64,000 nucleotides of DNA, taken from Serratia surfactantfaciens (GTDB taxonomy: Bacteria > Pseudomonadota > Gammaproteobacteria > Enterobacterales > Enterobacteriaceae). The translations under genes and the position numbers were made by a program. The stretch lies in assembly GCF_001642805.2 (NCBI RefSeq), contig NZ_CP016948.1, positions 124,001 through 188,000 on the forward strand, written 5' to 3'. Shown here in pieces: positions 4,498-16,644 of this stretch; the first letter of the stretch is position 1; every line of letters starts with the position of its first letter. Under the pieces are notes generated by a model that had not been told where the DNA came from, did no database searches, and was given only the letters and a program-made list of their open reading frames with translations.

Positions 4498-5292
4498 ATG
4501 ACCCAATCCACTCCGCTGCAGCGTCTGTTGAACATCATGAAAACGCTGCGCGACCCACAGGTCGGTTGCTCGTGGGACCGCAAGCAAACCTTCGCTACCA
4601 TTGCGCCCTACACGCTGGAGGAAACTTACGAGGTGCTGGACGCCATTGAGCGGCAAGATTACGCCGATCTGCGCGACGAGTTGGGCGATTTGCTGTTCCA
4701 GGTGGTGTTCTACGCCCAGATGGGGCAGGAACAGGGGCTGTTCGATTTCGATGAGGTGTGCACCGCCATCAGCGATAAGCTGGAGCGTCGTCATCCGCAT
4801 ATCTTCGGCGACGCCGAGGGCGGAGACAGCGAAACCGTCGCGGCGCGTTGGGAGCAGCTGAAAGCGGGCGAGCGCGCCGAAAAAGCGCTGCACTCGGTGC
4901 TGGACGATATTCCGCAGGCGCTGCCGGCATTGATGAAAGCGCACAAGATCCAAAAACGCTGCGCCTCGGTCGGCTTCGACTGGAACACTCTGGGCCCGGT
5001 GCTGGACAAAGTGTACGAAGAGATCGATGAAGTGATGCACGAAGCCCGCCAGGCGGTGGTCGACGAGAGCAAGCTGGAAGAGGAGATCGGCGATCTGCTG
5101 TTCGCCACGGTGAACCTGTCGCGTCATCTGGGGCACAAGGCGGAGAACGCGCTGCAGGCGGCGAACCGCAAGTTCGAACGCCGCTTCCGCCAGGTGGAAG
5201 AGATCGTTCAGCAACGCGGGCTGCGGTTGGAAGACGCCACGCTGGAGCAGATGGAAGAGGCCTGGCAGCAGGTGAAAAAATCTGAAATCTGA
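4498..5292 (+). CDS. mazG: Nucleoside triphosphate pyrophosphohydrolase MazG
   Basis: Hydrolyses NTPs and dNTPs to the monophosphates; in E. coli it affects ppGpp level and removes non-canonical nucleotides. The product is 264 residues, beginning MTQSTPLQRLLNIMKTLRDP, matching the E. coli length. An in-frame upstream ATG at 4426 is rejected because it would lie inside the preceding hairpin and add 24 residues unlike the family. Two tandem MazG folds are visible: EETYEVLDAIE with DELGDLLFQVVF (about 40-75) and a second copy with LEEEIGDLLFATVNL (about 197-211), each showing the acidic metal-binding motif. Confidence 0.97.
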   Translation: MTQSTPLQRLLNIMKTLRDPQVGCSWDRKQTFATIAPYTLEETYEVLDAIERQDYADLRDELGDLLFQVVFYAQMGQEQGLFDFDEVCTAISDKLERRHPHIFGDAEGGDSETVAARWEQLKAGERAEKALHSVLDDIPQALPALMKAHKIQKRCASVGFDWNTLGPVLDKVYEEIDEVMHEARQAVVDESKLEEEIGDLLFATVNLSRHLGHKAENALQAANRKFERRFRQVEEIVQQRGLRLEDATLEQMEEAWQQVKKSEI

Positions 5293-5389: not shown

Positions 5390-5950
5390 TTAACCGCATC
5401 TTTTCAGGTATTGGTAAAGCGTCTCTCTGCTGATGCCAAATTCGCGAGCAAGCTGCGTTTTCCTCTCACCGTTTGTTGCGCGTAACCGCAATTCAGCCTG
5501 TTGCTCGGAGGACAGCAATTTTTTTCTACCCCGGTAAGCGCCGCGCACTCTGGCCAGCGCGATGCCTTCGCGCTGGCGTTCACGAATTAAAGCTCGTTCG
5601 AATTCGGCAAATGCGCCCATGACAGACAGCATTAGCTTATCCGCTGATGAATCTTTACCGGTAAACGTCAAACTCTCTTTCACAAACTCAACGGTGACGC
5701 CTTTATCGGTCAGTCTGTGGACCTGACGTTGCAGATCATTCAGGTTGCGTGCCAATCTATCCATGCTCTGAACCACCACGGTATCGCCGTTGCGCACTGC
5801 CGAGAACAGGGCATCCAGCTCTGGGCGTTGTAGATCCTTGACTGACGCGTTATCAATGAAAGATTTATCTACCAGAGTTCTTTCCAGTTGCTGTTCGGGA
5901 CTCAGTTCACAGTGACTAATCCGAATGTAGCCAATACGTTGACCGTTCAT
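5390..5950 (-). CDS. tnpR: Tn21-type serine resolvase (TnpR)
   Basis: Small serine recombinase of 186 residues that resolves cointegrates of Tn3-family transposons at a res site. The N-terminus reads GQRIGYIRIS with the catalytic serine at position 12. Next come the MDRLARNL motif (about 64-71) and the E-helix region MLSVMGAFAEFERALIRERQ (about 108-127). A C-terminal helix-turn-helix follows (LAREFGISRETLYQYL). Length and motifs are very close to Tn21/Tn501 TnpR. No tnpA, merA or integron genes are present, so it is an orphan. Candidate res dyads lie just upstream of its start. It faces away from the RiPP operon and is probably a remnant of, or helper for, the element that brought the operon here. 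Confidence 0.93.
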   Translation of the reverse strand: MNGQRIGYIRISHCELSPEQQLERTLVDKSFIDNASVKDLQRPELDALFSAVRNGDTVVVQSMDRLARNLNDLQRQVHRLTDKGVTVEFVKESLTFTGKDSSADKLMLSVMGAFAEFERALIRERQREGIALARVRGAYRGRKKLLSSEQQAELRLRATNGERKTQLAREFGISRETLYQYLKRCG

Positions 5951-5970
5951 ACGCCTCCGATGCTGAATAT

Positions 5971-6035
5971 GTCATGAATAATCTATGACTTTAATTTCCT
6001 GTGTCAGTAAATAATATTTAAACCTTATTCTGACA
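5971..6035. promoter_or_regulatory. Candidate res site for the resolvase
   Basis: Directly upstream of tnpR are two dyads. One is GTCAT-9-ATGAC (5971-5989). The other is TGTCAG...CTGACA spanning 6002-6035, exactly 34 bases, the length of res subsite II in Tn3-type elements, with AT-rich halves (TGTCAGTAAATA / TGTCAGAATAAG). A third, imperfect dyad GTTAGAG-GTATA-GCTCAAC (6061-6079) lies where a crossover subsite I would be expected. Assignment as res is inference from spacing and half-site similarity. Confidence 0.5.
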
Positions 6036-6045
6036 CTTTTAGTTT

Positions 6046-6074
6046 TTGGCTTTATATTGCGTTAGAGGTATAGC
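6046..6074 (+). promoter_or_regulatory. Candidate promoter of the RiPP operon
   Basis: TTGGCT, 17 bases, then TATAGC form a plausible sigma-70 promoter, about 155 bases upstream of the precursor start. The whole 5951-6229 interval is strongly AT-rich and holds no other gene. It overlaps the candidate res subsite I, so resolvase binding could influence transcription. No close match to a known regulator site was recognised. Confidence 0.35.
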
Positions 6075-6229
6075 TCAACTTTTTGAAATAGTCTTTAAAT
6101 TATCAATCCAGTAACAAAAAACTTATCCTGTGTAACATTTTTGGTTTTTTCTTCTTTATCTTTAACAATGTTTAAGTAAAGGTAATTGCGCACATCAATT
6201 CCGGTGTGCAATACAAAAAGGATTATGTG

Positions 6230-6385
6230 ATGTCTAAATTAGCCAAAGAAATTAGCATGAATAAAGCAGCCGTCACCGTTGCAGCTGATAAAAAAGACGC
6301 ACGAAAAGCACTGGCTCAATCTATGCTGGATAGCGTTTCTGGCGGTTGGGTCAACGCCTTTGCGCGTTGGTCTAAGAGTTTCTAA
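6230..6385 (+). CDS. xyeA: XyeA-like triceptide (RiPP) precursor peptide
   Basis: 51-residue peptide read directly from the bases, too short for routine ORF calling. AAGGA lies 7 bases before the ATG. The leader (residues 1-39) is Lys/Ala/Asp-rich and ends LDSVSGG, a classical double-glycine site for a C39-peptidase exporter. The 12-residue core WVNAFARWSKSF contains three aromatic-x-(N/R/K) triplets: WVN (40-42), FAR (44-46) and WSK (47-49). In the XYE family of Enterobacterales, radical SAM/SPASM enzymes join the aromatic ring to the beta-carbon of the third residue of such triplets, giving three-residue cyclophanes. The following genes supply maturase, protease and exporter. The modified product and any antibacterial activity are inferred. 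Confidence 0.88.
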   Translation: MSKLAKEISMNKAAVTVAADKKDARKALAQSMLDSVSGGWVNAFARWSKSF

Positions 6386-6395
6386 TTAGTCTTGG

Positions 6396-6419
6396 TGCAG
6401 GGTGGGAAACCACCCTGCA
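6396..6419 (+). terminator. Attenuator hairpin between precursor and maturase genes
   Basis: Perfect 10-bp stem TGCAGGGTGG / CCACCCTGCA closed by a GAAA tetraloop, 10 bases after the precursor stop and followed by TTTCCTCATTT. The weak, interrupted T-tract suggests partial termination or protection of the precursor mRNA from 3' decay. Either would make more precursor than enzyme, as is common in RiPP operons. Confidence 0.75.
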
Positions 6420-6450
6420 TTTCCTCATTTGTTGAACCGTGGTGCAGGCA

Positions 6451-7629
6451 ATGACGAATAAGAAAAAAATAAAGCATCTTGAAATAATTCTAAAGGTTAG
6501 TGAACGATGCAACATTAACTGCACGTATTGCTATGTATTCAACCTGGGCAATGATTTGGCAATAAATTCAAAACCAATTATTTCTCATAACATCATTAAA
6601 GACCTGAGGGGGTTCTTCGAGCGGGCCTGTCAGGAGTATGAAATAGAAACGGTACAGGTTGATTTTCATGGTGGCGAACCATTAATGATGGGGAAAGAGC
6701 GTTTCGATAACGCCTGCAAAGAGCTTATTTCAGGTGATTACCAAGGCGCCAGGCTCAACCTGGCCTGCCAAACAAACGCTATCCTTATTGATAATGAGTG
6801 GATTGATATTTTCTCGAAATATAATATCAGCGTGGGTATTTCTATTGATGGTCCTAAGCACATTAACGACAGGCACCGTCTGGATAGAAAGGGCCGCAGC
6901 ACCTACGAAGGTACGGTAAAAGGGCTGGAGATGCTACAGGCAGCCTGGAAGGCGGGTCGGCTTATCGATGAACCCGGTATCCTGTGCGTCGCCAATCCCT
7001 CGGTAAAAGGTGCTGAGATTTATCGCCATTTTGTTGATGTGCTGAAATGCAAAAAATTTGACTTCCTCATTCCTGATGAAAGCCATGATACGTGTACCGA
7101 TCCTGACGGACTGTCAGATTTTTATTGCTCAGCGTTGGATGAGTTCTTTTTGGATGCGGATAAAGAGGTGTATGTACGCTACTTCCATACGCACATTCAA
7201 TCCATGTTGAGTTCAGAATTCAGTCCAGTAATGGGGGTGAGTAAAGCCGGAAGCGACACTCTCGCTTTCACGGTGAGCTCCGATGGCGATCTGTATGTGG
7301 ATGATACGCTCAGAACGACTAATGACGCTATATTTACGCCTATTGGCAATGTTCAGGATTTAATGCTGTCAGGCACGTTGGCTTCATGGCAGATGAAAAA
7401 ATATATGGCGGTGAATAATCAGCTTCCTACCGTTTGCGCTGATTGCGTATGGCAAAAAGTTTGCGGCGGTGGCCGCCATATTCAACGCTATTCCTCAGGC
7501 GATGATTTCAACCGTGAAACCGTGTTCTGTCCGTCGATAAGAAAGATTATGAGCCGCGCGGCTTCGCATTTGATTGAATCGGGTGTGAGTGAAGATATAA
7601 TCATGAAAAACCTAGAGGTTAACTCATGA
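6451..7629 (+). CDS. xyeB: XyeB-like radical SAM/SPASM cyclophane-forming maturase
   Basis: Predicted to form three-residue cyclophane crosslinks on the upstream precursor. The 392-residue protein has the radical SAM motif CNINCTYC (C20, C24, C27), then DFHGGEP typical of the SAM-binding fold. The C-terminal SPASM region has CADCVWQKVCGGG (C329, C332, C338) and a later ETVFCPS cysteine for auxiliary iron-sulfur clusters. The start is uncertain: a GTG at 6439 is in frame, but neither start has a strong Shine-Dalgarno; the ATG was preferred. The stop overlaps the next start by ATGA, implying translational coupling. Base composition is clearly more AT-rich than flanking housekeeping genes, consistent with acquisition by transfer. 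Confidence 0.9.
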   Translation: MTNKKKIKHLEIILKVSERCNINCTYCYVFNLGNDLAINSKPIISHNIIKDLRGFFERACQEYEIETVQVDFHGGEPLMMGKERFDNACKELISGDYQGARLNLACQTNAILIDNEWIDIFSKYNISVGISIDGPKHINDRHRLDRKGRSTYEGTVKGLEMLQAAWKAGRLIDEPGILCVANPSVKGAEIYRHFVDVLKCKKFDFLIPDESHDTCTDPDGLSDFYCSALDEFFLDADKEVYVRYFHTHIQSMLSSEFSPVMGVSKAGSDTLAFTVSSDGDLYVDDTLRTTNDAIFTPIGNVQDLMLSGTLASWQMKKYMAVNNQLPTVCADCVWQKVCGGGRHIQRYSSGDDFNRETVFCPSIRKIMSRAASHLIESGVSEDIIMKNLEVNS

Positions 7630-8489
7630 TCAAACGGCTATCCTTGTTGGCATTCTTTTTTTCCGGCATTAGCATGGCGGATCCACCCGCTGATTTTGGG
7701 CGTTTGCGGTATGATGAGCGTGGGTTGCCGCTAATTGATGTGCGGATCGATAACCGCCTTCATACCTTAATGCTGGATACCGGCAGCGGGGAGGGGATGC
7801 ATCTTTATAAACACGATCTTGACAACTTGGTGGCTAATCCGAGTCTGGAAGTGTCGAAACAAGCGCCTCGTCGGTTGATGGATGTTTCCGGTGGAGAAAA
7901 TAATGTCTCCGCCTGGAAAATTAGCCGGTTATTTATTTCAAACATTCCTTTCGATAATGTTGAAACGGTCAGTTTCAAACCATGGGGATTAAGCATTGGC
8001 GGTGATGTCCCCGTGAATGAAGTTATGGGATTGGGGCTTTTTCGAGAGCGCCGGGTGCTGATGGATTTTAAAAACGATCGGTTGCAACTGTTGGCCGATT
8101 TGCCTTCTGACATAAAGAAATGGTCATCTTACCCTATTGAACCCACCGCCTCTGGGCTACGCGTTATCGCCTCTGCAGGCGATACGTCTTTGCATCTGAT
8201 TGTCGATACGGCGGCCAGCCATTCTCTGTTGTTTTCCGACCGTTTGCCGCCAGGCCTCCTGTTTTCTGGCTGTCGCGATATTGAACCTGAAGCATCAAAC
8301 CTGGATTGCAGGGTGACAAAAATCGCTTTTACGGATCGTGAAGGGACGACTCGTGATGATCTGGCCGTTGTCACCCTTGGCGCAACGCCTCAGGAACTGG
8401 ATTTCGACGGCTTGTTGGGAATGAAGTTCATGCGGGGACATCAGGTGATCATCGATATGCCTGAGCGCCTGCTCTATATCAGCCGTTAG
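7626..8489 (+). CDS. Exported two-lobed retropepsin-like aspartic protease
   Basis: 287 residues with a signal peptide (IKRLSLLAFFFSGISMA, cut near residue 18), so periplasmic or membrane-associated. It has two aspartic-protease lobes. Lobe one has DTGSG (D51) and the closing motif VNEVMGLGLFRERRVLMDF (130-148). Lobe two has VDTAAS (D194) and FDGLLGMKFMRGHQVIIDM (260-278). Each half carries the hydrophobic-(D/N)xx(L/M)G pattern of clan AA proteases, suggesting an internally duplicated, self-dimerised enzyme. Sitting between maturase and exporter genes, it probably trims the exported peptide or removes leader remnants. It could instead be a protective or immunity factor. Confidence 0.82.
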   Translation: MIKRLSLLAFFFSGISMADPPADFGRLRYDERGLPLIDVRIDNRLHTLMLDTGSGEGMHLYKHDLDNLVANPSLEVSKQAPRRLMDVSGGENNVSAWKISRLFISNIPFDNVETVSFKPWGLSIGGDVPVNEVMGLGLFRERRVLMDFKNDRLQLLADLPSDIKKWSSYPIEPTASGLRVIASAGDTSLHLIVDTAASHSLLFSDRLPPGLLFSGCRDIEPEASNLDCRVTKIAFTDREGTTRDDLAVVTLGATPQELDFDGLLGMKFMRGHQVIIDMPERLLYISR

Positions 8490-8493
8490 CGCG

Positions 8494-9711
8494 ATGGACA
8501 AAGAAAACTCTCTTTTCCGCCCGGAGGCGTTGCAGCATAAAAAAAATGCCTGGCTGGGCGATTTTACCGTGTCGGCACCATCAGTGTTGCCAATTGCCTT
8601 ATGGAGCGCCGCTGCTGTTTTGCTGGTGGCTATTCTCCTGTTATTTACCACCTATGCCAAAAGGGTCCCTGTCACCGGGCGAGTGATCTATACCCCCTCC
8701 GCAGCGGAGGCGGTATTCAATCATGAAGGCATCATCGGCCGCATCGAAGTCCGCCAGGGAGAAAGGGTGAAAAAAGGCGATGTTATCGCAACGTTTTCAC
8801 GCGACGTCGCCTATGCGGGGGGAGGAATGAATCAGGCGTTGCAAGATGCGGCTCAGCGTCAACTTACTGAATTGCAAAAGCGTGCGGAAGAACGGCGTAA
8901 AGAGGGGGAAGAAGAACGCCTGCGTTTGCGTGAGAAAGTCGGCGCCAAAGAACGGGAAATGGTGGCGATTCAAGCCGCGGCGGCGGCAGAGTCGGAGCGT
9001 GTCGCCGGTTTGAAGAAGCGCATGGAGCTTTATCAACAGCTGTTACAGAAAGGTATTACGACCGTACAAGAGAAAATTGAGCGGGAGAACGAATACCATG
9101 ATTCCATCGCGCAGTTGAACACGCATCGAATCAATATCGCGCGGGTGAAAGGCGAGCTGCTGCAATTCCTGGATGAGCTGGCTCGCTCTGAATCGCAGGA
9201 AAAACAGTCTATTACTGACATTCAACAGCAGAAGGTTACGCTGCAACAACAGGTGATTAATGCTTCTGCGGTCGTGGAGTCGCGGGTAGTGGCTCCACTT
9301 GATGGCGTCGTCGCTTCAATGAGCATTTTGGAAGGGCAGAGAGTGGCTGCGGGTGCCGTTGCTGCGGTCGTGGTGCCGGAAAACGCGCGCCCATTCGTGG
9401 AAATGTGGATCCCGCCTTCCGCGTTGCAGGAAGTGAAAGCGGGTCAGCATGTTTTCATGCGTGTCGCATCATTGCCTTGGGAGTGGTTTGGGAAAGTGTC
9501 CGGTACGGTTGCTGCCATCAGCGCAAGTCCTGAGGCCCTAACGGGAAACAACCGGCGCTTTCGCGTGTTGATAACGCCCGATGTGGGCACGCGTGCGCTC
9601 CCGGTGGGCGTGGACGTCGAGGCCGATATCTTGACGACGCATCGGCGCATCTGGGAATGGCTGTTTTTACCATTAAAACAAAGTATTAACCGTATGACGG
9701 CTGAGAGTTGA
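8494..9711 (+). CDS. HlyD-family membrane fusion protein for peptide export
   Basis: 405-residue periplasmic adaptor linking the exporter ATPase to an outer-membrane channel such as TolC. A short cytoplasmic N-terminus precedes one membrane helix (about 32-52, PIALWSAAAVLLVAILLLF). A lipoyl half-motif follows (GIIGRIEVRQGERVKKGDVI), then a long Gln/Glu/Lys-rich coiled-coil hairpin (about 105-255). The second lipoyl half is ESRVVAPLDGVVASM, and a beta-barrel completes the protein. It starts 4 bases after the protease gene and is followed 3 bases later by the ABC exporter. No dedicated outer-membrane factor is encoded here, so a housekeeping TolC is presumably used. Confidence 0.92.
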   Translation: MDKENSLFRPEALQHKKNAWLGDFTVSAPSVLPIALWSAAAVLLVAILLLFTTYAKRVPVTGRVIYTPSAAEAVFNHEGIIGRIEVRQGERVKKGDVIATFSRDVAYAGGGMNQALQDAAQRQLTELQKRAEERRKEGEEERLRLREKVGAKEREMVAIQAAAAAESERVAGLKKRMELYQQLLQKGITTVQEKIERENEYHDSIAQLNTHRINIARVKGELLQFLDELARSESQEKQSITDIQQQKVTLQQQVINASAVVESRVVAPLDGVVASMSILEGQRVAAGAVAAVVVPENARPFVEMWIPPSALQEVKAGQHVFMRVASLPWEWFGKVSGTVAAISASPEALTGNNRRFRVLITPDVGTRALPVGVDVEADILTTHRRIWEWLFLPLKQSINRMTAES

Positions 9712-9714
9712 CAC

Positions 9715-11838
9715 ATGGTTTTTTCCTGGCAAAAAACGCCGCTTATCCTGCAGTCGGAAATGAATGAGTGCGGGCTGGCCTGTTTGGCCATGATGGCCGG
9801 CTATTTCGGCAAACGCATCGATCTCGCCTCGGCGCGCACCCTCCACGGCGCAAGCAGCCATGGGATGACGCTGCGGGATCTCATTACGGCGTTTGAACGG
9901 GTGGGGATGACGGCTCGCGCTTCGCGCGTGGAGCTCGATGAACTGCGTTCGCTGACCCGCCCCGCAATTCTTCATTGGTCATTCAATCATTTTGTGGTGC
10001 TGGTGAAAGTCACGCGTCGAGGCGCCGTGATCCTCGATCCCGCCATTGGTCGGCGCAGTATCTCCCTGCGCGAACTTTCCGATAAGTTCACCGGCATTCT
10101 GATGGAGGCCTGGCCGGCGGAGACCTTCGATAAAAAACCGCTGGAAATGAATGTTACCGTATCCGATCTTTTTCGTGGCGTACGGGGCTTAAGACGCATT
10201 TTTACCGGCGTTCTGATGCTTTCGGTTTTGGTGGAACTGCTCTCAATTGCCGTGCCGGCCGCTTCGCAATTTACTATCGATACATTAGTGCGTTCATCGG
10301 ATCGTGAAGGGATATTTTTTGTCGGTATCGTGGTCATTGCAGCATTGCTGATTAAGTCCGCCTTTTCCGTGGTACGTGCCTGGATTTTGATGAACCTTCG
10401 CTATACGCTGGGCGTCAAATGGGCCGAAATGTTCTTTAACCGGCTTATCAGGCTCACGCTGTCATTTTTTGAAAAGCGCCATACCGGCGATATCGCGTCG
10501 CGTTTCCAATCGTTGACCGCCATTCAGGAAGCGTTCACGGCCGATATGGTTGCCTCGCTCCTTGATGCGATTGTGATTGTTATTTCGATGGCGATTATTT
10601 TTACCTATTCTCCTGTGCTCGCTATCGGTCCCCTGATCGCCGCCTGTGCATATGCCGCCTTAAAAGCGGGCCTGTTCTCGACATACCGCAATCGTAAAAT
10701 CGAACATATCGCTTTTGAAGCGGTGCAATCCTCCCACTTCCTTGAGACGGTTAGAGCGATAAGCGCGATCAAAATGTTGAATTTGACGCCGGTTCGCCGC
10801 CGCGAATGGGTCAACCATGTGGTCAACAGCACACATGCAGGGAACCAACTGTTTAAACTTGATTTGCTGACCAATACGGCGGCTGTATTGCTTGTGGGTT
10901 TTTCCGGGATTTACGTACTTAGCGTCGGCGCCATCGGGTTCGATAAAGGCATTACGACTGGCGCCTTGTTGGCTGTGATGCTTTATGCCGATATGGTGAT
11001 TACCCGCACGGTGAAGTTAGTCAATGCGGTTTCCGACTTCTGTCTGGTATCCATGCATAGCCAGCGTCTGACAGACGTGGCGGTTTCACCTGTGGAACGG
11101 GATGAAGGGGAGCATGTATCGCCACAGCTGAATGGGCATATCGTGATCCGCAACTTAGCGTTCCGCCATTCCCAGGCCGAGCGCAACATCTTCGAGGGGA
11201 TCAATCTTGAGGTCATGCCAGGGGAAAACGTGGCGATTGTCGGGCCGTCCGGGTGTGGCAAGTCAACATTCCTCCATGTGTTGGCGGGGTTGTACGAATC
11301 TACCGAAGGGGATGTTTTCATCAATAATGTGGGGATGTCCGGCATGGGCAAACGAGACATTCGTGAACATGTCGCTTTTGTCATGCAAGACGACAAACTC
11401 CTGGCCGGAACCATACAGCAGAATATTACCGGTTTTACCGCATCACCCGATATGGAACGCATGGCTGAGTGTGCCAACCATGCGTCCATTGACGAGGAGA
11501 TCAGCGCATTTCCGCAGGGATACGATTCGATGATTGGTGATATTGGCAGCACGCTTTCTGGCGGGCAACGCCAGCGTATTTCTATCGCCAGAGCGCTGTA
11601 CCGGCAACCTCATGTGCTGTTGCTTGATGAGGCAACCAGCGATCTTGATATTGATAACGAAAAAAGGATCACTCGCGCTATCGGGCAATTGCCAATAACC
11701 CGCATTTTTGTTGCCCATCGCCCGGAAATGATCAAGTCAGCGGATAGGGTCTTTAATCTTCATTTGAACGCTTGGGTAAAGCAGGAAAGCCGGGGGACCG
11801 CTACAATGTTGATCGCCGACAAGGTTCACTCAAGCTGA
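9715..11838 (+). CDS. Peptidase-containing ABC exporter (C39 / PCAT)
   Basis: 707-residue inner-membrane exporter that cleaves the leader after the double glycine and pumps the peptide out. The N-terminal C39 peptidase has QSEMNECGLAC with Q13 and C19, then H92 (FNHFVVL) and D108 (LDP), a complete catalytic set. A transmembrane domain of about six helices occupies roughly 155-440. The nucleotide-binding domain has Walker A GPSGCGKST (about 510), signature LSGGQRQR (about 613), Walker B VLLLDEATSDLD (about 634) and an H-loop VAHRPE. Last gene of the operon. The active peptidase fits the GG site of the precursor. Confidence 0.94.
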   Translation: MVFSWQKTPLILQSEMNECGLACLAMMAGYFGKRIDLASARTLHGASSHGMTLRDLITAFERVGMTARASRVELDELRSLTRPAILHWSFNHFVVLVKVTRRGAVILDPAIGRRSISLRELSDKFTGILMEAWPAETFDKKPLEMNVTVSDLFRGVRGLRRIFTGVLMLSVLVELLSIAVPAASQFTIDTLVRSSDREGIFFVGIVVIAALLIKSAFSVVRAWILMNLRYTLGVKWAEMFFNRLIRLTLSFFEKRHTGDIASRFQSLTAIQEAFTADMVASLLDAIVIVISMAIIFTYSPVLAIGPLIAACAYAALKAGLFSTYRNRKIEHIAFEAVQSSHFLETVRAISAIKMLNLTPVRRREWVNHVVNSTHAGNQLFKLDLLTNTAAVLLVGFSGIYVLSVGAIGFDKGITTGALLAVMLYADMVITRTVKLVNAVSDFCLVSMHSQRLTDVAVSPVERDEGEHVSPQLNGHIVIRNLAFRHSQAERNIFEGINLEVMPGENVAIVGPSGCGKSTFLHVLAGLYESTEGDVFINNVGMSGMGKRDIREHVAFVMQDDKLLAGTIQQNITGFTASPDMERMAECANHASIDEEISAFPQGYDSMIGDIGSTLSGGQRQRISIARALYRQPHVLLLDEATSDLDIDNEKRITRAIGQLPITRIFVAHRPEMIKSADRVFNLHLNAWVKQESRGTATMLIADKVHSS

Positions 11839-13791: not shown

Positions 13792-15156
<1,365 letters not shown>

Positions 15157-15179
15157 GTTCGACCGATTCGGTTGCTAAA

Positions 15180-15206
15180 TAAAAACCCGCCGCGGCGGGT
15201 TTTTTT
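15180..15206. terminator. Terminator after eno
   Basis: CCCGCC-GC-GGCGGG stem with an A-run on the left and seven Ts on the right (15200-15206), a textbook intrinsic terminator that could work in both directions. Confidence 0.9.
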
Positions 15207-15453
15207 ATGTTTTAAATTCGTGATGATTGTCATTTTAATAATAAGTTTTTTATTGAAAGCGTGGTTTTGTTTAACCCGATAATTTCATTAAAGATAGTAA
15301 ACGCGATTATTTTATATTCCCATTTTGTTTGCTTTATAACTATTCGTTACTAGACTGCCAATAAGGCAGTTTATTTTCGCCGTTCTGCCGTAGACCTTGA
15401 ACATCACCATACCTTAATACTGCCGGCTTGCTGGCCGGTTGAGCGAGGGCTTG
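15207..15453. other. AT-rich intergenic region before the sulfur operon
   Basis: About 250 bases with no protein gene, strikingly AT-rich for this genome. It contains a small hairpin ACTGCC-AATAA-GGCAGT followed by TTATTTT (15354-15377), which could end a short upstream transcript or attenuate the downstream operon. The promoter of the following operon must lie here, but no convincing -35/-10 pair could be singled out. Confidence 0.4.
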
Positions 15454-16644
15454 ATGCGACAACGAATCATCATTGTCGGCGGTGGAACCGGCGGCACCAT
15501 CCTGGCCAATTTATTGGCTGCAAAATTACACCGGGAAATTATTAATAATAAAGTCGAGTTATTAATGATATCGGATTCACCGCTGCATTATTACAAACCG
15601 GCGTTTATGTATGTGGCATTCAATTCTTTTTTCAAGCAGGAGCTTACGCGCTCACAGCGGAGTTTATTGCGGCCTGAAATACAGTTTATTATTGATAAAG
15701 CAGAATCTTTCGATTTAAAACAGCGAAGTATAGCGACACAAAGCGGTAAATTTTATTCCTATGATTTTCTGGTTTTCGCCACCGGCTGCGTACCCTGGCC
15801 AGAGCGCATCGAAGGGTTGGCGCAGGCGGGCGATCATTTCTACCAGTATCAGGCCGCGCAGCAGTTGGCGCATAAGCTGGCGACGATCGAGAAAGGCCGC
15901 ATTTTCATCACCGTGTCCTTCCCTGAAACGCCCAACGTGCCCCACCAGTGCGGCATCGCCCCGATCGAAACCACCCTGATGCTGGACGACTACCTGCGGC
16001 GGCGCGGCGTGCGCAAGGCGGTGGAGATCGTTTATACCTACCCAACCATTTCTCAACTGCTGCGTAACTGCCTGTTTTTACAGCGCCCGACCGGCGAAGC
16101 GTTGCCCGCCATTTTTGCCGCACGTGACATTCTCCACCAGCGTGGGTTTACCCTCAGCCGGGTAGACGCCCAACGTAACATCGCCTATTCCGCTGAGGGG
16201 GAAGAGCAGTCGTTCGACATTCTGATGGCAACGCCGCCGATTCGCGCAGTCGAAGCGGTGCGCAATACAGGGTTGAGCGAGAGTCAAAACGGTGAAGGCT
16301 GGCTGCCGACCGATCATCAAACGCTGCAGGTCTACGGCCAGCAGGGCGTGTATGTCATAGGCGATACCGTGGATTTGCCGGTCAGCAAGGCCGGCGGCTC
16401 TTGCCATAATCAGGCGCCGGTCATTGCCGACAACATCGTGGCGGAAATGCGGCTGGGCCAAACCGTGAGCCATTATGACGGCAAGGTGCAGGCGGTCGCG
16501 CAAATGGGGCTGAATGCCGGCATGCCGCTGGTGTACGACTACCGTCACGACGTGCTGCCGACGCCCGCCACCAAGGTGGGCGGCATGCTGCGCAATGGGT
16601 TTAACCGCGGCCTTTACTGGGCCACGGTAAGGGGGCTGATATGA
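15454..16644 (+). CDS. Sulfide:quinone oxidoreductase-like FAD flavoprotein
   Basis: 396-residue pyridine nucleotide-disulfide-type flavoprotein. The N-terminal FAD-binding motif is IIIVGGGTGGTILAN, then FATGCVPWP (about 113-121), HQCGIAPIE (about 166-174) and a C-terminal FAD contact VIGDTVDLPVSKAGGSCHNQAP. Spacing of the cysteines and absence of a CxxC redox pair fit the SQR family, which oxidises sulfide and passes electrons to quinone. The ATG at 15454 after GAGGGC is preferred to an in-frame TTG at 15439. The stop overlaps the next start (ATGA). Downstream methionine gamma-lyase supports a sulfur role. Substrate is inferred. Confidence 0.78.
   Translation: MRQRIIIVGGGTGGTILANLLAAKLHREIINNKVELLMISDSPLHYYKPAFMYVAFNSFFKQELTRSQRSLLRPEIQFIIDKAESFDLKQRSIATQSGKFYSYDFLVFATGCVPWPERIEGLAQAGDHFYQYQAAQQLAHKLATIEKGRIFITVSFPETPNVPHQCGIAPIETTLMLDDYLRRRGVRKAVEIVYTYPTISQLLRNCLFLQRPTGEALPAIFAARDILHQRGFTLSRVDAQRNIAYSAEGEEQSFDILMATPPIRAVEAVRNTGLSESQNGEGWLPTDHQTLQVYGQQGVYVIGDTVDLPVSKAGGSCHNQAPVIADNIVAEMRLGQTVSHYDGKVQAVAQMGLNAGMPLVYDYRHDVLPTPATKVGGMLRNGFNRGLYWATVRGLI

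What the first reader, a model, noticed from the sequence alone, without database searches (positions are those of the whole stretch)
5390..11838. Acquired XYE-type triceptide (cyclophane RiPP) island between mazG and pyrG
Seen: a 51-residue GG-type precursor, radical SAM/SPASM maturase, exported aspartic protease, HlyD adaptor and C39-peptidase exporter, all in one direction with 4-base overlaps or gaps, in DNA more AT-rich than both flanks and next to an orphan resolvase. Known: in Enterobacterales the XyeA/XyeB type installs three-residue cyclophanes on short C-terminal cores. Inferred: this locus makes an exported, crosslinked, possibly antibacterial peptide. The family is described, but this core and this five-gene layout may not be.
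Basis: partly seen in the sequence, partly recalled or inferred. Interest (0 to 1): 0.88.

Follow-up and report, generated by a model that had tools for sequence, protein, structure and literature searches.

The report
XyeA peptide island with candidate immunity protease
A Serratia chromosome carries a complete, already recognised kind of gene set for making and exporting a small cross-linked, probably antibacterial peptide, and its unexplained protease gene is kept alone by some relatives that lost the rest, which makes it a good candidate for the gene that protects cells from the peptide.

Summary
Window 6230-11838 is a complete five-gene XyeA/XyeB triceptide cluster: precursor and maturase score well above the curated NCBIfam cut-offs (72.9 vs 33 and 582.8 vs 450 bits). 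It is an acquired island: 24 of 29 Serratia genomes with mazG have an empty mazG-pyrG site, and the island swaps the last codons of mazG. The family, core pattern and gene order are not new: the same order is annotated on a Xenorhabdus bovienii megaplasmid. The likely product is a three-cyclophane 12-mer; the related xenorceptides are reported BamA inhibitors, inferred here. The new result is the exported aspartic protease. Two Serratia species keep only this gene at the island site, a third keeps it beside a decayed xyeB, and two Xenorhabdus keep it in gutted clusters. The lone Serratia copies are under purifying selection (p = 1e-11). No BamA change marks the full-island Serratia. I propose that it is mainly the self-immunity gene and can persist as an orphan. 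Against this, two other relics kept no intact protease, and pyrG next door is as similar between the two lone-gene species. No experiment was possible.

The parts
5275..5292 (.). left border of the island: supplies the last codons of mazG (tail KKSEI* in place of K[RCS]QE[SN]* or KRKES*)
   Evidence: tail KKSE[IV] in 5 of 5 Serratia carriers and in 0 of 20 non-carriers whose tail was read (4 of 29 genomes not read)
5390..5950 (-). small serine resolvase, part of the Serratia island
   Evidence: PF00239 103.4 bits; 85% and about 78% (two pieces) identical copies in the two other full Serratia islands; matches in 3882 plasmid records at 60-80% identity
6230..6385 (+). xyeA, 51-aa precursor; 39-aa leader ending GG; core WVNAFARWSKSF (predicted rings W1-N3, F5-R7, W8-K10)
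   Evidence: TIGR04495 72.9 bits (cut-off 33); leader hydrophobics at -4, -7, -12; rings inferred from the family
6394..6421 (+). stem-loop between xyeA and xyeB (12-bp stem, 4-nt loop)
   Evidence: fold -25.5 kcal/mol, z -2.46; a hairpin with a 4-nt loop in the intergene of 6 of 6 clusters folded (z -1.7 to -4.8; weakest in G286)
6439..7629 (+). xyeB, radical SAM/SPASM cyclophane maturase (GTG start at 6439 or ATG at 6451)
   Evidence: TIGR04496 582.8 bits (cut-off 450); CNINCTYC motif read in the sequence
7626..8489 (+). secreted two-lobed pepsin-like aspartic protease; motifs D51-TGS and D194-TAAS; candidate self-immunity gene
   Evidence: PF13650 27.9 bits (gathering 24.3); model and fold; both motifs in 29 of 29 relatives compared; retained without the other genes
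8494..9711 (+). HlyD-family periplasmic adaptor
   Evidence: PF13437 53.7 bits
9715..11838 (+). C39 peptidase-ABC exporter (PCAT); its last codons are read from native DNA of the mazG-pyrG gap
   Evidence: PF03412 116.9 bits, PF00005, PF00664
11798..11838 (.). right border zone: island joins the displaced mazG 3' end and native intergenic DNA
   Evidence: the native part is present in empty sites

Best explanation
An acquired XyeA/XyeB triceptide island. Shown by sequence: the family identity of the genes, the island nature, and the persistence of the protease gene where the others are lost. Inferred: (1) XyeB closes three i/i+2 C-C cyclophanes on the core (W1-N3, F5-R7, W8-K10; expected [M+H]+ 1492.712 against 1498.759 unmodified). 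(2) The C39 domain cuts after GG, and the ABC-HlyD pair with a host TolC-type channel exports the ringed 12-mer. (3) Outside, it acts on competing Gram-negative bacteria, most likely at BamA like xenorceptide A2. (4) The Sec-exported aspartic protease sits in the periplasm and destroys or disarms peptide that comes back; it is mainly a self-immunity enzyme. Because immunity is useful without production, the gene can survive and spread alone as an orphan.
For: Identity. Island. Leader fits the C39 rule in PMC10885120 (passages). BamA action of a relative: PMC12971899 (passages). Immunity: the protease is the only island gene between mazG and pyrG in Serratia G408 and G401 and the only intact one in G398; all carriers share the island's left border. 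G408 vs G401: 37.5 of 212 synonymous and 20.5 of 649 nonsynonymous sites differ, p = 1e-11; one shared deletion is assumed, from their shared layout. Xenorhabdus G447 and G177 keep an intact protease in otherwise gutted clusters; against the G286 copy these too are constrained (p = 2e-7 and 3e-4). In that genus 8 of 30 genomes have XyeB and all 8 have a protease gene, but 11 of 19 with the protease lack XyeB. The tree needs 8 changes between clustered and lone state, 5 of them forced by starred branches. Both Asp motifs stand in 29 of 29. No BamA column marks the two full-island Serratia among 30; the beta-1 segment is identical in 26 of 30, all five carriers included.
Against: Whole-cluster DNA scans also found relics without an intact protease: G440 (protease broken, nothing intact) and G423 (exporter intact, hlyD broken, rest not found, contig end); G427 has a 91-base scrap of the exporter's end, not counted. 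So the protease is the lone survivor in 4 of 6 relic events (P = 0.017 if each of five genes were equally likely; 0.033 for 4 of 7), and that null is crude because the gene is shorter than xyeB, hlyD and abc. G177 still has another XyeB cluster elsewhere. Between G408 and G401 the protease (93.3%) is more alike than mazG (85.2%) or relA (89.4%) but hardly more than pyrG (92.8%), so its exchange between them is not shown. The tree tool warned of long branches, and lone/clustered labels are only weakly grouped (75 of 500 shuffles as low). A lone clade at a fixed place in Xenorhabdus could be housekeeping. A protease of this family was found near every XyeB place above cut-off that I examined, which fits maturation equally well. 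A pepsin-like enzyme in a neutral periplasm is unusual. BamA as target is carried over from a relative. No peptide or activity was observed.
Confidence: 0.58

Rival explanations
1. The aspartic protease is a maturation enzyme: it trims the exported peptide (for example its C-terminal end) into the active form, in the manner of two-step leader processing with a second secreted protease.
For: A protease of this family lies near every XyeB place above cut-off that was examined; second secreted proteases such as CylA and LicP are known after PCAT cleavage (PMC10885120, passages).
Against: The gene is kept under purifying selection where precursor, maturase and exporter are gone; the predicted core already follows GG and ends two residues after the last ring.
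Confidence: 0.28
2. The protease works on host envelope proteins and is only hitch-hiking in the cluster; lone copies are housekeeping genes.
For: A lone clade sits at one fixed chromosomal place in several genomes of the Xenorhabdus genus.
Against: Matches are rare: 7 of 394 genomes of the order at E <= 1e-20 and 5 of 30 in Serratia; lone and clustered copies are mixed in the tree.
Confidence: 0.14
3. The island is silent or its product is a signal rather than an antibacterial.
For: No expression data; the promoter scan upstream found 3 sites on both strands against a mean of 1.5 in shuffles, which is no evidence either way.
Against: All five reading frames are open and conserved across species: xyeA core identical and xyeB 94% in MSU97; a relative is reported bactericidal.
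Confidence: 0.15

Closest known systems
XyeA/XyeB triceptides (TIGR04495/TIGR04496; XncA/XncB of Xenorhabdus)
   Same: precursor and maturase far above curated cut-offs; aromatic three-residue motifs after GG; exporter genes
   Different: only small core changes; F-x-R in place of the F-x-N seen in five precursors of the Xenorhabdus genus, while X. japonica has F-x-R too
Xenorceptide A2 (bamabactin, BamA inhibitor)
   Same: the review describes it as a peptide antibiotic that inserts as a strand in BamA (passages of PMC12971899); that it comes from the XncA/XyeA family is recalled, not from a call
   Different: sequence of A2 not seen here; activity of this peptide untested
xye cluster of Xenorhabdus bovienii CS03 megaplasmid (NZ_FO818638.1)
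   Same: same five genes in the same order; protease 70% and XyeB 84% identical; two recombinase genes upstream
   Different: plasmid-borne; protease annotated only as hypothetical protein
Orphan immunity genes of bacteriocins
   Same: protective gene kept by non-producers
   Different: known as a concept (search listing of 8 of 25 papers); none of those 8 titles and abstract starts speaks of an aspartic protease
Pepsin-like aspartic peptidases (e.g. PDB 9iy9, Bacteroides fragilis)
   Different: 16% identity to 9iy9; linkage to a RiPP cluster

Membership tests
XyeA precursor (TIGR04495) | score above curated cut-off over whole length | tested here: met
   72.9 vs 33 bits, residues 2-51 on model 1-50
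XyeB maturase (TIGR04496) | score above curated cut-off | tested here: met
   582.8 vs 450; next best YhhB 238.6, below its own cut-off of 445
Triceptide | three-residue aryl-Cbeta cyclophanes in the product | not testable with these tools
   needs mass spectrometry and NMR; expected masses
Xenorceptide-type BamA inhibitor | binds BamA lateral gate | not testable with these tools
   only the relative's activity is reported; BamA of the full-island Serratia shows no residue of its own
PCAT exporter (C39-ABC) | C39 peptidase, ABC membrane and ATPase domains; GG leader with hydrophobics at -4, -7, -12 | tested here: met
Aspartic peptidase, two-lobed | PF13650 above gathering score; two catalytic Asp motifs; pepsin-like fold | tested here: met
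Self-immunity gene of a RiPP cluster | kept without the biosynthetic genes and under selection | tested here: met
   but sole intact survivor in only 4 of 6 relic events
Self-immunity gene of a RiPP cluster | protects cells from the product | not testable with these tools
   bench test proposed
Genomic island | empty sites in relatives and defined borders | tested here: met
Genomic island | integration by its own recombinase | tested here: inconclusive
   resolvase present at the left end; no clear flanking repeats

The most novel reading that the evidence does not exclude
The cluster's exported pepsin-like aspartic protease is a dedicated immunity enzyme against a BamA-directed cyclophane peptide: a proteolytic defence that acts in the periplasm, leaves BamA unchanged, and persists in enterobacteria as an orphan resistance gene after the producing genes are lost.
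Probability: 0.43. Interest if true: 0.72.

Novelty: new member of a known kind. Interest (0 to 1): 0.47.

Why it matters
The peptide cluster itself only extends a described family. The protease matters because peptides that jam BamA are sought as antibiotics for Gram-negative bacteria, and I saw no account of how producers of this family survive them in the listings or the passages. If a protease already present in some enterobacteria disarms such peptides, it is both the answer to producer self-protection and a resistance gene to watch for. It can be tested with one gene in a laboratory E. coli.

Tried and rejected
1. I first read the exporter's tail in the protease-only loci as a scar of a deleted cluster. 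Empty sites hold the same sequence, so I dropped it; the shared left border in mazG carries the argument instead. 2. BamA change as immunity: not seen in Serratia (main BamA copy of each of 30 genomes; the second copies of G409 and G410, which have empty sites, were left out of the comparison). 3. 'The protease always survives': rejected by G440 and G423. 4. Exchange of the lone gene between G408 and G401: suggested by mazG and relA, not by pyrG; left open. 5. Solved-structure relatives of the precursor: none convincing (best E 1.2). 6. E. coli: no DNA match to the protease gene in 20,395 records. 7. PADLOC: only matches to about the last 35 residues (PDC-M08B, best E 3.5e-8); not pursued. 8. 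Integration repeats for the resolvase: nothing convincing. 9. Two papers on triceptides are not held, so statements about print rest on the listings and the passages. 10. The precursor pattern search caught 11 of 15 full clusters; the other four (MSU97, G177, G660, G443) did not match my pattern; ORFs for MSU97 and G177 were seen. 11. In the tree G654 gave no protease row and was left out: 29 of 30 loci used. 12. Three XyeB-like loci below the cut-off (G015, G095, G313) have no protease match in their genomes at E <= 1e-20; not pursued.

Full report
What is there. The window holds, between mazG and pyrG, a serine resolvase on the minus strand and then xyeA, xyeB, a secreted aspartic protease, an HlyD adaptor and a C39-ABC exporter on the plus strand. 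XyeA scores 72.9 bits against a cut-off of 33, and XyeB 582.8 against 450.

The precursor. The leader ends in GG with hydrophobic residues at -4, -7 and -12, the rule for C39 exporters given in PMC10885120 (passages). Among 11 of 15 clusters whose precursor my pattern caught, core residue 1 is W in 11, residue 3 is N in 10, residue 8 is W in 11, residue 10 is K or R in 11, and residue 7 is R in 6 or N in 5. The window's core letters recur in 4 of the 14 rows (P0001, P0002, P0005, P0013). The core is therefore ordinary for the family. The rings are inferred from XncB chemistry (PMC11002830, passages).

The island. Of 30 Serratia genomes searched, 29 have a mazG match. Two hold the full island (the window's genome and G403, which is S. 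marcescens MSU97), two hold only the protease gene (G408, G401), one holds the protease behind a decayed xyeB (G398), and 24 are empty, with mazG-pyrG spacing of 354-384 bases in 21 and 501-506 in 3. The island's left end supplies the last codons of mazG: KKSE[IV] in all 5 carriers, in none of the 20 empty sites whose tail was read, with 4 not read. XyeB above cut-off is rare: 3 of 394 genomes of the order. The same gene order lies on the X. bovienii CS03 megaplasmid beside two recombinase genes. S. rubidaea NCTC12971 has it at mazG-pyrG too; its record splits both xyeB and pyrG over frames, which may be sequencing error.

Why immunity. A maturation enzyme has no use without its substrate; a protective one has. 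In G408 and G401, two species, the protease sits alone with the same layout on both sides. The copies differ at 37.5 of 212 synonymous and 20.5 of 649 nonsynonymous sites (Fisher p = 1e-11). If the deletion happened once, all of that divergence came after the loss, so the lone gene is under selection. It is more alike (93.3%) than mazG (85.2%), relA (89.4%) or the bamA region (89.0%) of the same genomes, but hardly more than pyrG (92.8%), so exchange between the species is possible, not shown. Scanning 30 genomes of the Xenorhabdus genus (identified through G435 = X. japonica DSM 16522) and 30 Serratia genomes with whole-cluster DNA gave six relic events: protease the only intact gene in four (G408/G401 as one, G398, G447, G177), nothing intact in G440, exporter intact in G423 at a contig end. 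A 91-base scrap in G427 was not counted, and the many short matches of other ABC exporters were not taken as relics. In the Xenorhabdus genus XyeB occurs in 8 of 30 genomes (9 places, each with a protease gene within about 5 kb); 11 of the 19 genomes with the protease lack XyeB, though several of these are distant members that may belong to other exporter clusters. The tree needs 8 changes between lone and clustered, at least 5 by starred branches; it carries a long-branch warning.

BamA. If the product acts like xenorceptide A2 (PMC12971899, passages), the producer must be protected. No BamA column separates the two full-island Serratia from the others among 30 genomes, and the beta-1 segment is the same in 26 of 30, all five carriers included. 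Protection must then come from elsewhere; the protease is the only gene of the cluster without another assigned job.

Limits. No product, activity or expression was observed. Two papers on triceptides that I tried are not held here. The genome set has one genome per species. The equal-chance test for survivors (P = 0.017 for 4 of 6; 0.033 for 4 of 7) ignores gene length.

Noticed in passing
window 6394-6421: A strong stem-loop between xyeA and xyeB; hairpins with a 4-nt loop in the intergene of 6 of 6 clusters folded. It may stabilise the precursor message or damp read-through.
   Followed up: partly
window 5275-5292 and 11798-11838: The island supplies the last codons of mazG, and the displaced native end has become the last codons of the exporter gene.
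   Followed up: partly
window 5390-5950: The island resolvase has matches in 3882 plasmid records (60-80% identity), among them a 119-kb Serratia nevei plasmid.
   Followed up: partly
L160, L161: Two Serratia genomes (G409, G410) carry a second full-length BamA gene in a locus where I saw no RiPP genes.
   Followed up: partly
L058, L112, L113, L116: A lone clade of the protease lies at one fixed place beside prmC-like and SulP-like genes (own reading of the ORFs) in four genomes of the Xenorhabdus genus looked at.
   Followed up: partly
L108, L111: Other XyeA/XyeB-like clusters put the protease after the exporter instead of after xyeB.
   Followed up: no
L106: xyeB of genome G660 falls in two frames while the protease beside it is open; a decaying cluster or a sequencing error.
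   Followed up: no
window 14501-16000: A second AT-rich stretch (G+C 47-50%) downstream of pyrG.
   Followed up: no
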